From: an uncultured Planctomycetota bacterium
GTDB taxonomy: Bacteria; Planctomycetota; Phycisphaerae; Sedimentisphaerales; Anaerobacaceae
Assembly: GCA_903927855.1 (NCBI GenBank)
Contig: CAIYOL010000311.1
Span: 1 to 17,705 of the forward strand
Reading direction: 5' to 3'
Length of the DNA: 17,705 nucleotides
A program made the position numbers and the translations under genes. The notes beneath the pieces are model-generated. The model saw only the letters and a program-made list of their open reading frames with translations, ran no database searches and was not told the origin of the DNA. Each line of letters starts with the position of its first letter. Position 1 is the first letter of the stretch. Shown here in pieces: positions 12,136 to 16,710 of the stretch.

Positions 12136-12164
12136 ATTATACAACGGGGGCGCAAAAAGGTCAA
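12136..12164 (-). promoter_or_regulatory. Strong predicted promoter of cstA
   Basis: On the minus strand TTGACC (12164-12159), 17 bases, TATAAT (12141-12136): five and six of six consensus matches at ideal spacing. The transcription start is expected near 12129, only about 12 bases before the ATG at 12117. No ribosome-binding site is present in that short leader. Confidence 0.65.
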
Positions 12165-12219: not shown

Positions 12220-13257
12220 TTATTTTTCCACACCCGGCGGAGTTTCGGCGGCAGGCAGAGGTATCAGCTTGAATCGGGCGGTAGCGGGCTGCTGATTGAG
12301 GCGAATATCGTCTTTGCGGAGGTATTCATCGGGGAAGTTGTAAATGAGATTTCTTCTCAGCGGCTCAGCGGCTCCAGCGTCCTCATCGTCGATTTCCAAG
12401 GTGACCTGATAAGGCATTTTTTCGTAGGCCCGTTTTGCATCTGCGGTGGCCCTGATGGTGATAGTGCGTATAACCTCGTCGAGATTGTCCACGACGACTT
12501 TGTATTTTCCCTGGATGTTCGGACTTATGGAAAATCTCAGTCTTGCGGTTGTTATGGTATAGTCGGCGAGGAGGTCTTCTTCCGGCGGCATTGTGATTTT
12601 CACGGGTTTTTGCAGTTCTCTGATTTGTCCCGGGGCCAGCTCGATGAAAGGAGTTTTTTCGACAGCCGACAATTTGGCCTGGTCGATTTCCCTGCGAGTC
12701 AGCTGAACGTTTGCAATGAGCTTTTCGCCGCTCCAATCTTTTGGCACAAACGCATCGAGCTGTTTTGGCTCAATGACCGCGGCCTTTATAGCGTTTTGCG
12801 TTTCGTCGATACACTTTATGGTCAGCGGCTTTTTTTCAAGCTCAATAACCTTTACCGACAGGGACTGCGGCTCGCAGGATTCGACTGTGAGGCCGAGCTG
12901 TTTTATCTGGTCGCTTTGTCGCAGGAAAGTCAGCAGGGGCAGGGTGTATTCGCCGGGGCTTGCGATTGTTTCGGTCTGCCCGGGGTCTAAAAAGAATTCA
13001 AAAACAAGCGAGCCATCTTTTAGTTTTCGCTTTACATCGGCAATTTTTGACGCTGGCCCTTTAAGAGCCATTTTGTCGATAAAGGCAGATGATTTGTCGC
13101 CGAAACTTACCCGGAGGCCGGGATTGGTGGATTTGGCAGTTATATTAACGCTGGAGACAGAGAATACTTCGTCCAGGGCCAAGTCTGCCCAGACCCATAT
13201 CAAGACTGTTATAAAAACAACAGCCAGTATTTTGCCGTAGTTGACTTTTTTTGCCAT
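12220..13257 (-). CDS. cdaR: YbbR-domain protein, CdaA regulator type
   Basis: A membrane-anchored protein with extracytoplasmic YbbR repeats; in Firmicutes the homologue CdaR binds and modulates the diadenylate cyclase CdaA. The 345 residues begin with one membrane helix at about 9-26 (KILAVVFITVLIWVWADLAL) and continue as beta-rich repeats with the YbbR pattern. These are seen at about 34-135 (ending ESCEPQSLSVKVIELEKK), 138-230 and 232-335, the last ending in TARFKLIPLP. A Pro-rich tail closes the protein. It lies directly downstream of cdaA (54 bases) on the same strand, which is the classic cdaA-cdaR order and the main support for the gene symbol. The ATG at 13257 lacks a clear Shine-Dalgarno sequence. 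Confidence 0.85.
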   Translation of the reverse strand: MAKKVNYGKILAVVFITVLIWVWADLALDEVFSVSSVNITAKSTNPGLRVSFGDKSSAFIDKMALKGPASKIADVKRKLKDGSLVFEFFLDPGQTETIASPGEYTLPLLTFLRQSDQIKQLGLTVESCEPQSLSVKVIELEKKPLTIKCIDETQNAIKAAVIEPKQLDAFVPKDWSGEKLIANVQLTRREIDQAKLSAVEKTPFIELAPGQIRELQKPVKITMPPEEDLLADYTITTARLRFSISPNIQGKYKVVVDNLDEVIRTITIRATADAKRAYEKMPYQVTLEIDDEDAGAAEPLRRNLIYNFPDEYLRKDDIRLNQQPATARFKLIPLPAAETPPGVEK

Positions 13258-13311: not shown

Positions 13312-14175
13312 CTATACAATATCTTCCTGTTTTTTTCGGTTATTGTTTCTCCTGGGCAATCTCCAGAACCTCTCGGCAACCGGGGCCATCTCGTCCATAG
13401 CGCTGATTAAAAGCTTTCTTAGCTCGGATTCGCCGATTTTTCTGGTCAGCAATCCGTTCTGTGCAAGTGAGATGATTCCGGTTTCCTCGCTTACTACTAA
13501 GCAGATGGCGTCCGAGCCTGTGGTTATACCGATGGCAGCTCGATGCCGGGAGCCGAGTTCAACGCCATCTACGCTGCCTGCTTCAGCCAACGGCAGCTGC
13601 ACGCCGGCAGCAAGAGCTCTGTCGCCACGGATTATAACGGCCATATCGTGAAGCGGGGTGCCGGAGTAAAAAATAGTCTTGAGCAATTCAGCTGTAACCC
13701 TTGCGTCGATTTCGATGCCGGTTTCTATAAATTCTCCCAGCGCCACTTTCTTCTCGATAACAATAATAGCGCCGGTTTTGGTGGCGGCGAGCTCAGTTAC
13801 GGCGGTAATTATTTCTTCTGCGGTTCTTGAGAGCAGGTGCGATGGGTGCGTCAAAAAGCTGGTGCGTCCTATTCGTATAAGAGCACCTCTGATTTCCGGC
13901 TGAAAGGCGGCAACGGCAATAATCAAGACGGCCACTAAAAAGCCGTTGTAGAGATATTGCAGGCGTTCGAAAGCAAACCGTCCGACGACCAACTTTAAGA
14001 TGAGAAAGCCTGCGATGAGGATGAGTATAACGCCGTGGAACAACTTTTCTCCACGAGTTCCTTCGAGAAAATCGACGGCCCAATAAACTACCAGGCCGAT
14101 AAGAAACAGTTCAATAGCGACGACCCACCAATCATATCCTCCGACTCGTCTGAAATAATCGATGAGCGTTTCCAC
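13312..14175 (-). CDS. cdaA: Membrane-bound diadenylate cyclase CdaA (c-di-AMP synthase)
   Basis: Joins two ATP into cyclic di-AMP, a second messenger that controls potassium and osmolyte transport and cell-wall balance. The 287 residues show three membrane helices (about 14-35, 45-64 and 74-91), the linker AFQPEIRGALIRIGR, and a DAC (DisA_N) domain at about 115-265. Motifs: GTPLHDMAV with Asp177, GSRHRAAIG with RHR at 210-212, and LVVSEETGIIS. The normally invariant DGA motif reads D-M-A here. The start is GTG at 14175, with AAAGGGA upstream. It sits 65 bases after a small lipoprotein gene and 54 before cdaR, apparently all driven by the promoter at 14645-14673. Confidence 0.93.
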   Translation of the reverse strand: METLIDYFRRVGGYDWWVVAIELFLIGLVVYWAVDFLEGTRGEKLFHGVILILIAGFLILKLVVGRFAFERLQYLYNGFLVAVLIIAVAAFQPEIRGALIRIGRTSFLTHPSHLLSRTAEEIITAVTELAATKTGAIIVIEKKVALGEFIETGIEIDARVTAELLKTIFYSGTPLHDMAVIIRGDRALAAGVQLPLAEAGSVDGVELGSRHRAAIGITTGSDAICLVVSEETGIISLAQNGLLTRKIGESELRKLLISAMDEMAPVAERFWRLPRRNNNRKKQEDIV

Positions 14176-14240
14176 AACTCAAGTCCCTTTGAATGTTTCC
14201 GAACGCAGTAAAAAGCGTTTGGGCTTCCTTGTCCATCCAA

Positions 14241-14513
14241 CTAATCGCCGATGGGCGGGGGTATCTTTTTGTCGGAGAGCGTGCTTGGTTTATCGAAGAG
14301 CAGAGCACGGTCTATATCGGCGTTCAAGTTCTGCTGGTTGATAGAAAGGTTTCGCAGATGCCTTCGATTCCCCTCGGCAGTAGTTTCACCCGGCTGCTCA
14401 CAGCTACAGAGCCAGAAAACCGCAGTACACAAAAGAACCGCCAACAGCAAAGAAGATGTGCGTTTGGCGCCCTCGACGATACCCACAATCGTCCGAACGA
14501 AAGCGTTTTTCAT
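14241..14513 (-). CDS. Small predicted lipoprotein upstream of cdaA
   Basis: 90 residues, no family recognised. The N-terminus is MKNAFVRTIVGIVEGAKR, followed by a hydrophobic core (SLLLAVLLCTAVFWL, 21-35) and a lipobox L-C-S-C with Cys38, so a lipid-anchored product of about 52 residues is expected. The mature part is polar and ends in KKIPPPIGD. AAAAGGA lies 7 bases before the ATG at 14513; the longer frame to 14561 would place this site inside the coding sequence and is rejected. It is the first gene after a strong promoter and a structured leader and is followed by cdaA and cdaR, so a role linked to cyclic di-AMP signalling or the envelope is possible but unproven. Confidence 0.75.
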   Translation of the reverse strand: MKNAFVRTIVGIVEGAKRTSSLLLAVLLCTAVFWLCSCEQPGETTAEGNRRHLRNLSINQQNLNADIDRALLFDKPSTLSDKKIPPPIGD

Positions 14514-14638
14514 TGTTATTTCCTTTTGAAAATAAATAACCCGAGCGTGTTTTCCAGCCAAGGTTATTCCTCAGGCCCCCGCAAAGCAGGAACCACTTAA
14601 CATCACCCAAACGGCAAATGCCGTTACCTCCAAAGCCA
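14514..14638 (-). promoter_or_regulatory. Structured 5' leader RNA of the cda operon, riboswitch-like
   Basis: Between the predicted transcription start (about 14638) and the lipoprotein ATG lie about 125 bases with several helices. Hairpin A (14625-14610): AACGGC, loop AUUU, GCCGUU, six perfect pairs. Hairpin B (14594-14574): GGUUCCUGC, loop UUU, GCGGGGGCC, nine pairs including three G-U wobbles that exist only in the minus-strand RNA. Then AAUAACC (14568-14562) can pair with GGUUAUU (14541-14535), while overlapping GUUAUUU (14540-14534) can instead pair with AAAUAAC (14521-14515), which covers the end of the ribosome site just before the ATG. I do not recognise a known riboswitch class; a stable small RNA is the alternative. 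Confidence 0.45.
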
Positions 14639-14644
14639 AAGACC

Positions 14645-14673
14645 ATTATATCAGTCTGCGGAACGGTTGTCAA
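14645..14673 (-). promoter_or_regulatory. Consensus sigma70-type promoter of the lipoprotein-cdaA-cdaR operon
   Basis: On the minus strand TTGACA (14673-14668), 17 bases, TATAAT (14650-14645): all twelve consensus bases at ideal spacing. It is the best promoter in the window. Transcription should start near 14638. Such strength is usual for abundant or stable RNAs or for genes held down by downstream control. Confidence 0.8.
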
Positions 14674-14706
14674 CGCAAAAGCCAGCCGGTTGCGGCGGTT
14701 TTTAAA

Positions 14707-14737
14707 ACGGGCACAAAAAGGCTATTTTTGTGCCCGT
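14707..14737. terminator. Terminator-like perfect 13-bp hairpin between divergent promoters
   Basis: ACGGGCACAAAAA (14707-14719), loop GGCTA, TTTTTGTGCCCGT (14725-14737): a perfect 13-bp stem. On the minus strand the stem runs straight into TTTTAAAAA; on the plus strand TTTTTT follows nine bases later. No annotated gene ends here, because the flanking genes diverge, so it may insulate the two promoters or end an unseen transcript. Confidence 0.4.
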
Positions 14738-14864
14738 AAAGCAGGTTTTTTCGGACGATGCTATGGTAATGCCGAGCTTGCGAGGTGAAATTAATCATAG
14801 CACCGGCAGAAAAAAGTCAGCCGCCCGCTGCAAAATTATCGCTTTGATTTTATCGCTGCCGGGA

Positions 14865-16636: not shown

Positions 16637-16710
16637 TGGGCGATACAGGATTCGAACCTGTGACCTCACGGGTGTGATCCGTGCGTTCTAACCAGCTGAA
16701 CTAATCGCCC
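16637..16710 (-). tRNA. tRNA-Val, anticodon CAC
   Basis: Minus-strand cloverleaf of 74 bases: acceptor GGGCGAT/ATCGCCC, D stem GTTC/GAAC, anticodon stem CACGG/CCGTG around loop ATCACAC (anticodon CAC, reading GUG), five-base variable loop, T arm ACAGG-TTCGAAT-CCTGT, discriminator A. CCA is not encoded (TTA follows), so it must be added enzymatically. Confidence 0.95.

What the first reader, a model, noticed from the sequence alone, without database searches (positions are those of the whole stretch)
14511..14673. Riboswitch-like leader in front of a cyclic di-AMP operon
A perfect TTGACA-N17-TATAAT promoter drives a leader of about 125 nt before lipoprotein-cdaA-cdaR. Two strong hairpins (14610-14625 and 14574-14594) stand first; the second folds well only in the minus-strand RNA because of three G-U pairs. 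Then three short segments compete: 14562-14568 pairs with 14535-14541, or 14534-14540 pairs with 14515-14521, which would mask the ribosome site and the bases before the ATG. This is the logic of a translational switch. I recognise no known riboswitch class; the ligand, if any, might relate to c-di-AMP, potassium or envelope state.
Basis: partly seen in the sequence, partly recalled or inferred. Interest (0 to 1): 0.7.

Follow-up and report, generated by a model that had tools for sequence, protein, structure and literature searches.

The report
Structured leader of a lipoprotein mRNA
In a little-known group of planctomycete bacteria, the gene of a small lipoprotein, usually encoded next to the enzyme that makes the signal molecule cyclic di-AMP, is preceded by a conserved folded RNA leader; it matched no known RNA family, but nothing found here shows that it is a cyclic di-AMP switch.

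Summary
The described elements are there: a perfect promoter (one of 6 in 2.05 Mb), a ~125-nt leader (the 136-nt stretch tested folds better than 198 of 200 shuffles), both hairpins and the complementary segments. Relatives change the reading. (1) The leader goes with the small lipoprotein gene: in five other genomes (three strong, two weak matches) such a leader plus lipoprotein stands without cdaA. (2) Hairpin P3 (14569-14534) is kept in the six near leaders (three genera), with two compensatory pairs, both in one genome; far genera share a P1 hairpin and a long-range P3. Covariation is moderate; an all-pairs phylogeny-aware test gave no significant pair. (3) The switch looks unbalanced: P3 -13 to -18 kcal/mol, ribosome-site fold about -4 in four of six; no excess folding at the ribosome site over 33 genera, although the Shine-Dalgarno is partly paired in the models. 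(4) No Rfam match; the near-group motif occurs once per genome. Best reading: a lineage-specific structured 5' leader that passively sets stability or translation of a lipoprotein mRNA, cdaA being downstream. A ligand is neither shown nor excluded. A far-genus model without the ribosome site misses the near leaders, so homology of the two sets rests on position, promoter and 3' end.

The parts
14645..14673 (-). sigma-70-type promoter TTGACA-N17-TATAAT, extended TG
   Evidence: 12/12; 6 such sites in the genome; a 12/12 site in the upstream-oriented stretch of 56 of 73 same-family cdaA loci (a few of these stretches include coding sequence)
14514..14638 (-). mRNA leader of about 125 nt (start inferred 7 nt after the -10)
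   Evidence: fold z -2.75; identity to the two same-genus leaders 0.76 and 0.68, against 0.62 and 0.64 upstream of the promoter and 0.77 and 0.75 in the lipoprotein gene; to G013 0.47, no better than shuffled 0.46
14610..14625 (-). hairpin 1 (P1 position), AACGGC-ATTT-GCCGTT
   Evidence: the position is structured across genera, but sequence and strength differ within the near group
14597..14607 (-). GGTGATGTTAA, block identical in the six near leaders
   Evidence: invariant in 6 of 6 leaders of three genera
14574..14594 (-). hairpin 2, 9 bp with three G-U pairs, an insertion seen only in the window's genus
   Evidence: predicted in G001 and G002 with other letters; the stretch is absent in G003, G047, G013
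14534..14569 (-). P3 hairpin (AAUAACC...GGUUAUU plus upper stem)
   Evidence: -13.4 kcal/mol here, -15.1 to -17.5 in the five relatives; two pairs changed on both sides in G013
14516..14535 (-). weak 8-bp fold UUAUUUUC-AAAA-GGAAAUAA that would hold the Shine-Dalgarno GGA
   Evidence: -4.0 kcal/mol, 6% of shuffles as good; modelled P(unpaired) of the Shine-Dalgarno GG 0.47; no excess folding there over 33 genera
14520..14525 (-). Shine-Dalgarno AAGGAA
   Evidence: read; 7 nt between GGA and the ATG
14241..14513 (-). small lipoprotein, 90 aa, family motif PGETxAEGxRRHxRxxxIN..DxDxxLLxDxPSxLxdkRiP
   Evidence: no significant Pfam or NCBIfam match
13312..14175 (-). diadenylate cyclase CdaA
   Evidence: Pfam DAC, TIGR00159 above cut-off
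12220..13257 (-). conserved 345-aa protein in the position of cdaR
   Evidence: aligned with 22 homologues; no significant family match

Best explanation
This is the structured 5' leader of a small lipoprotein gene in one family of Phycisphaerae (records named Sedimentisphaerales are among the relatives). A strong promoter makes an mRNA whose first ~100 nt form local hairpins, above all P3, followed by an A/U-rich ribosome site. Shown: promoter, fold, conservation of the unit promoter-leader-lipoprotein, P3 with compensatory changes in one relative, and leader-like units beside the lipoprotein without cdaA. Inferred: the hairpins act in cis and passively, protecting the 5' part of the transcript and setting a steady yield of an envelope lipoprotein; cdaA and the next gene are read from the same mRNA. 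A two-state switch is not needed.
For: Rare perfect promoter, present in 56 of 73 family stretches. 45-nt folds, 57 leaders of 33 genera: mean z -0.91 (s.e. 0.20) starting 10 nt after the -10 and -0.69 (0.23) starting 60 nt before the ATG (-0.40 without the near genera); upstream flanks -0.06 and -0.01, ribosome site +0.08 and +0.11. P3 paired in 6 of 6 near leaders, -13.4 to -17.5 kcal/mol. Far genera: P1 and long-range P3. Leader-like element plus lipoprotein without cdaA in the 1.8-2.3 kb downstream: G119, G117, G058 (E 7e-9 to 2e-7) and, weaker, G041 (0.024) and G036 (0.27). Near-group model R3: one strong hit in each of its six genomes, each this leader.
Against: No expression or decay data. 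All-pairs phylogeny-aware test: best pair E about 0.23, none in P1 or P3. Tree-based helix test: far P3 covariation reached by 41 of 300 nulls, and the number of pairs with changes on both sides is not above the null for P1 (71 of 300) or P3 (284 of 300). The ribosome site is not clearly free: modelled P(unpaired) of the Shine-Dalgarno GG is 0.12-0.51 in the six near leaders; over 62 leaders the last 20 nt plus ATG average 0.48 against 0.40 for the rest, more open in 43 of 62; an earlier wording of mine that the site is kept free was dropped for this and the confidence lowered from 0.45 to 0.40. R2 (far leaders without the ribosome site) does not find the near leaders in the five of their six genomes searched, E up to 10. 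Hairpin 1 lies about 13 nt from the inferred start. Leader lengths vary: 36 of 58 parsed family leaders are 100-135 nt.
Confidence: 0.4

Rival explanations
1. Binding site for a protein or small RNA (for example autoregulation by an envelope-stress regulator): the conserved block GGUGAUGUUAA and P3 are recognised and the mRNA is silenced or stabilised.
For: An 11-nt block identical in six leaders of three genera inside an otherwise diverged leader; single-gene association in the near group fits a dedicated regulator.
Against: No candidate regulator was sought; the block is not seen as such in the far leaders aligned.
Confidence: 0.2
2. Ligand-responsive translational switch: a metabolite shifts P3 against a helix that masks the ribosome site.
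For: A ribosome-site fold of -4.0 to -4.4 kcal/mol in four of six near leaders, better than 87-99% of shuffles; the far genera have two mutually exclusive helices, local P2 and long-range P3.
Against: The imbalance against P3 is about 9-13 kcal/mol; the 3' strand of P3 pairs with the pre-ATG region with modelled probability at most 0.043; the fold is absent in G003 and G013. No excess folding at the ribosome site in 33 genera. No second strong copy in the near genomes. No Rfam match.
Confidence: 0.12
3. No function: a diverging leader behind a conserved promoter, with hairpins of moderate strength that are not selected.
For: No significant pair in the all-pairs test; hairpin 2 is confined to one genus and hairpin 1 differs between near relatives; whole-leader identity to G013 is at the shuffled level (0.47 against 0.46); many family leaders are shorter.
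Against: Structure signal over 33 genera with flat upstream controls; compensatory changes in P3; P1 pairing and covariation reached by 1 and 3 of 300 tree-based nulls.
Confidence: 0.15
4. Constant damping of translation by the small hairpin UUAUUUUC-AAAA-GGAAAUAA and its like, which pairs the Shine-Dalgarno without competing with P3. Added on rechecking.
For: Shine-Dalgarno GG modelled unpaired only 0.12-0.51 of the time in the six near leaders; fold better than most shuffles in four of six.
Against: 54% and 84% of shuffles fold as well in G003 and G013; mean z near 0 over 33 genera.
Confidence: 0.08
5. Upstream reading frame: the conserved GTGATGTTAAG is the start of a short ORF that couples or attenuates translation of the lipoprotein.
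For: ATG-TTA-A is conserved in the six near leaders; in G003, G047 and G013 the frame runs open into the lipoprotein.
Against: No Shine-Dalgarno at the usual distance; in the window the frame stops after 10 codons (read); frames and ends differ within the genus (read).
Confidence: 0.05

Closest known systems
[quoted passage not shown]
   Same: An RNA leader; the operon here makes c-di-AMP; ydaO-type elements sit before transporter or cell-wall genes, and one seems to act on translation (PMC9960051, abstract and passages seen).
   Different: No match in Rfam scans, which cover every family of release 15; smaller and simpler fold (recalled for ydaO); the leader goes with a lipoprotein gene, also without cdaA.
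Orphan structured 5' leaders found by comparative genomics (e.g. the 104 candidates of PMC2864571; listing and start of abstract seen)
   Same: Conserved hairpins in front of one gene family in one lineage, function unknown.
   Different: Weaker sequence conservation and covariation than published motifs usually show (recalled); no Rfam match.
5' stem-loops that stabilise mRNAs (recA of Acinetobacter and vacA of Helicobacter in PMC7509114, passages seen; the ompA 5' hairpin partly recalled)
   Same: Hairpins in the 5' leader of a well-expressed gene; ompA also encodes an envelope protein.
   Different: No stability data here; hairpin 1 starts about 13 nt from the inferred transcript start.

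Membership tests
c-di-AMP riboswitch (ydaO/kimA type) | match to the family's covariance model | tested here: not met
   window at gathering score: only a tRNA; 14230-14760 at E up to 10: four weak matches, none a riboswitch; 13 relative loci: none
c-di-AMP riboswitch (ydaO/kimA type) | binds c-di-AMP | not testable with these tools
   needs binding or probing experiments
translational riboswitch in general | two competing folds of comparable energy, one masking the ribosome site | tested here: not met
   P3 -13.4 to -17.5 against -4.4 or weaker; pairing of the P3 3' strand with the pre-ATG region at most 0.043
translational riboswitch in general | conserved core found before several genes | tested here: not met
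   R3 has strong hits only on its six leaders among 89 genomes; 4 of its 17 weak extra hits were read, in or beside unrelated genes
transcription attenuator | intrinsic terminator in the leader | tested here: not met
   the pattern scan lists no terminator-like site between 14673 and 14511
conserved structured mRNA leader | fold better than shuffles, at one position, across relatives | tested here: met
   57 leaders of 33 genera
conserved structured mRNA leader | covariation beyond phylogeny | tested here: inconclusive
   P1 reached by 3 and far P3 by 41 of 300 nulls; no single pair significant; two compensatory pairs in near P3, in one genome
5' stabilising stem-loop | longer mRNA half-life that depends on the hairpin | not testable with these tools
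   no RNA data

The most novel reading that the evidence does not exclude
An unknown class of cis-regulatory RNA, restricted to this family of Phycisphaerae, senses an envelope- or c-di-AMP-related signal and sets the amount of a lipoprotein and, through the shared mRNA, of the c-di-AMP synthase. In the far genera the two exclusive helices (local P2 against long-range P3) would be its two states.
Probability: 0.12. Interest if true: 0.65.

Novelty: new member of a known kind. Interest (0 to 1): 0.3.

Why it matters
It points to a pairing of an undescribed small lipoprotein with CdaA in planctomycetes: 90 of 98 cdaA stretches examined, from five of the seven families of the order seen, hold a match to it (the place upstream of cdaA was checked for the 67 parsed loci). 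If the leader is regulatory, c-di-AMP supply there would be tied to lipoprotein expression. If it is only a passive leader, it is ordinary biology in an uncharted lineage and the c-di-AMP switch idea should not be carried on.

Tried and rejected
Known riboswitch or RNA family: Rfam on window, leader and 13 relative loci, nothing. Intrinsic attenuator: none in a pattern scan. Wider distribution: R1 in 161 genomes of the order gave 31 genomes at E up to 0.1, only 3 outside the family and at E 0.058-0.083, which chance explains. Other genes with the near-group motif: R3 gave 17 weak extra hits at E up to 0.3 in 89 genomes, which is what chance gives; I read the loci of four (E 0.0014-0.029): one lies inside a 1018-codon frame that I recognise as rpoC (recalled), the others in or beside unrelated frames. 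DNA operator instead of RNA hairpin: not favoured, because the arms change in sequence and many pairs are G-U. Upstream ORF: frames not conserved. Stable-RNA context of the other five perfect promoters: no Rfam family. CdaR identity: Pfam on 23 sequences and a profile against PDB sequences gave nothing that fits; a structure job was still unfinished at the last poll, so no fold is claimed. Papers: the listings (the last five and capped or short) show no title or abstract on this leader; passages of PMC7509114 and PMC9960051 were read, nothing else.

Own corrections: I first took the R1 hit as proof of family-wide homology; R2, without the ribosome-site end, did not find the near leaders, so that claim was cut back. 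I also first wrote that the ribosome site is kept free; one search does not bear this out, so the clause went, the best explanation fell from 0.45 to 0.40 and a damping rival (0.08) was added.

Rows dropped: 31 of 98 loci had no parsable promoter plus lipoprotein; one search used 46 and one search used 57 of the 67 parsed leaders; one search used 21 of 23 rows of A7; of 20 R1 hits away from cdaA I read 13, the other seven have E 0.11-0.84; the lipoprotein profile was built from 67 of the same 98 loci.

Full report
What is there. On the minus strand a perfect TTGACA-17-TATAAT promoter (14673-14645, extended TG) is followed after 131 nt by the ATG of a 90-aa lipoprotein (14513-14241), then cdaA (14175-13312) and a conserved 345-aa protein of unknown family (13257-12220). 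Such a perfect promoter occurs 6 times in the 2.05-Mb genome, against 0 for the pattern read backwards. The 136-nt stretch 14640-14505 folds at -41.3 kcal/mol, z -2.75, 2 of 200 shuffles as good.

Where it comes from. The genome is a fragmented assembly (417 contigs). Near relatives by CdaA are records named Phycisphaerae, Planctomycetota or Sedimentisphaerales bacterium, or uncultured bacterium; the order Sedimentisphaerales belongs to Phycisphaerae, Planctomycetota. DNA similarity over the whole leader reaches only the two other genomes of the genus (71% and 74%), plus an 85-base piece of the query in one genome of the next genus; the other matches are pieces of 19-35 bases.

Comparison. CdaA was found in 85 of 99 relatives and in 77 of 89 family genomes at a stricter cut. 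I examined 98 cdaA stretches; promoter, leader and lipoprotein could be parsed in 67, and a lipoprotein profile hits 90 of 98 (built from 67 of the same loci, position not checked for the rest). A 12/12 promoter lies in the upstream-oriented stretch of 56 of 73 family loci with at least 400 nt. Among 58 parsed family leaders the median distance from -10 to the first ATGA(A/G)(A/G) is 115 nt, and 36 lie between 100 and 135.

Structure across genera. For 57 leaders of 33 genera, a 45-nt piece starting 10 nt after the -10 has mean fold z -0.91 (s.e. 0.20), and one starting 60 nt before the ATG -0.69 (0.23), or -0.40 without the near genera. Upstream DNA gives -0.06 and -0.01; the ribosome site +0.08 and +0.11; coding sequence -0.24 (0.22), -0.02 and -0.09. 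So there is structure in the leader, but no excess over the ribosome site.

Near group (window, G001, G002, G003, G047, G013; three genera). The block GGTGATGTTAA is identical in the six while the parts around it diverge. Whole-leader identity of the window to G002 and G001 is 0.76 and 0.68 (upstream DNA 0.62 and 0.64, lipoprotein gene 0.77 and 0.75), to G047 and G003 0.56, and to G013 0.47, which is no better than shuffled (0.46). Hairpin 2 exists only in the window's genus. Hairpin 1 differs from leader to leader. A covariance model of this group (R3, ribosome site left out) has one strong hit in each of its six genomes, each this leader; the 17 further hits at E up to 0.3 in 89 genomes are at the level of chance, and the four read lie in or beside unrelated frames.

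Far group. Twelve leaders of other genera share a P1 hairpin at the 5' end and a long-range helix GCCGGCU/AGCCGGC with C-G to U-A and G-C to A-U changes, though several rows break some pairs; a local hairpin (P2) uses the same bases as the long-range helix. On an alignment fitted to the model (33 rows) 77.9% of cells pair against 68.0% in shuffles, covariation 0.329 against 0.210; on an unfitted MAFFT alignment (17 rows) 81.2% against 75.6%, covariation 0.297 against 0.249, 4 of 500 shuffles as high. With a null that keeps the tree, P1 is reached by 3 of 300 nulls for covariation and 1 of 300 for pairing; long-range P3 by 41 and 2 of 300; local P2 by 29 and 41. The number of pairs with changes on both sides is not above the null (71, 284 and 258 of 300). 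Among 5460 seven-pair geometries P1 ranks 8th and P3, in a register shifted by one, 7th; some unrelated A/U-rich geometries rank higher. An all-pairs test in the style of R-scape found no significant pair; best E about 0.23, not in these helices. The covariation case is therefore moderate.

Are the two groups one element? Model R1 (12 far leaders, whole length) has the window's leader as its only hit at E up to 1 in the whole genome, E 0.057, and hits G001, G013, G047 and G003, but not G002, at the same place. R2, made from 17 far leaders without the ribosome-site end, finds none of the near leaders at E up to 10 in the five of their six genomes that were searched (G000, G001, G002, G003, G013). 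The link rests on the same gene, the same promoter, a similar length and a similar 3' end, not on a shared core.

Whose leader is it? Of 20 R1 hits away from the cdaA loci I read 13: 10 are followed by the lipoprotein, one ends at a contig edge and two look like chance. Five of the 10 lie near contig ends and may be split cdaA loci. In the other five (G119, G117, G058 with E 7e-9 to 2e-7; G041 with 0.024; G036 with 0.27) there are 1.8-2.3 kb downstream without cdaA (tblastn), while cdaA sits elsewhere in the same genome. So the element goes with the lipoprotein gene; cdaA follows in most genomes. One lipoprotein copy was found in the window's genome (about 90% complete).

The switch. The fold over the ribosome site is worth -4.0, -4.2, -4.4 and -4.4 kcal/mol in four near leaders (6%, 13%, 4% and 1% of shuffles as good) and -0.8 and -0.2 in the other two (54% and 84%). 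P3 is about 9-13 kcal/mol stronger where both exist and its lower helix has modelled probability 0.92-0.99; pairing of its 3' strand with the pre-ATG region has at most 0.043. In the window the best ribosome-site fold is UUAUUUUC/GGAAAUAA, which overlaps P3 by one base, so it could coexist with it rather than compete. The Shine-Dalgarno GG is modelled unpaired only 0.12-0.51 of the time in the six; over 62 leaders the last 20 nt plus ATG average 0.48 unpaired against 0.40 for the rest (all). A mild dampening of translation is possible; a balanced two-state switch is not indicated.

Known or new. No Rfam family matches. Paper searches listed nothing on this leader (listings, two papers read in passages). 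It is best filed as a new, lineage-specific member of a known kind, structured mRNA leaders, of modest interest. The lipoprotein-CdaA pairing is perhaps the more useful lead.

Noticed in passing
window 14241-14513(-): A small lipoprotein family (PGETxAEGxRRH...DIDxxLLxDxPSxLtdkRiP) without significant Pfam or NCBIfam match goes with cdaA: 90 of 98 cdaA stretches from five families of the order hold a match.
   Followed up: partly
window 14707-14737(-): A 13-bp inverted repeat ACGGGCACAAAAA-TAGCC-TTTTTGTGCCCGT followed by TTTAAAA just upstream of the promoter; terminator-like on the minus strand but not flagged; a sub-threshold Rfam match to RNAI overlaps it (20.1 bits against 47).
   Followed up: no
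window 12220-13257(-): The protein in cdaR position is conserved (window plus 22 homologues, LIWVWADLALDE near the N-terminus) but matches no YbbR/CdaR model by sequence.
   Followed up: partly
L021, L022, L025 leaders: In G013, G047 and G003 an ORF starting in the conserved GTGATGTTAAG block runs in frame through the leader into the lipoprotein; in the window the same ATG gives a 10-codon frame.
   Followed up: partly
L204, L205, L206: In one genus the leader plus a lipoprotein copy stand alone beside a convergent 656-666-codon ORF; in one of these genomes (G117, L185) the cdaA locus has its own lipoprotein with a much shorter leader.
   Followed up: partly
window 12136-12164(-): The cstA-like gene (12117-10276) has its own 11/12 promoter, so it may not depend on the cdaA transcript.
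   Followed up: no
window 16637-16710(-): A tRNA gene, the only Rfam match of the window at gathering score (68.5 bits).
   Followed up: no
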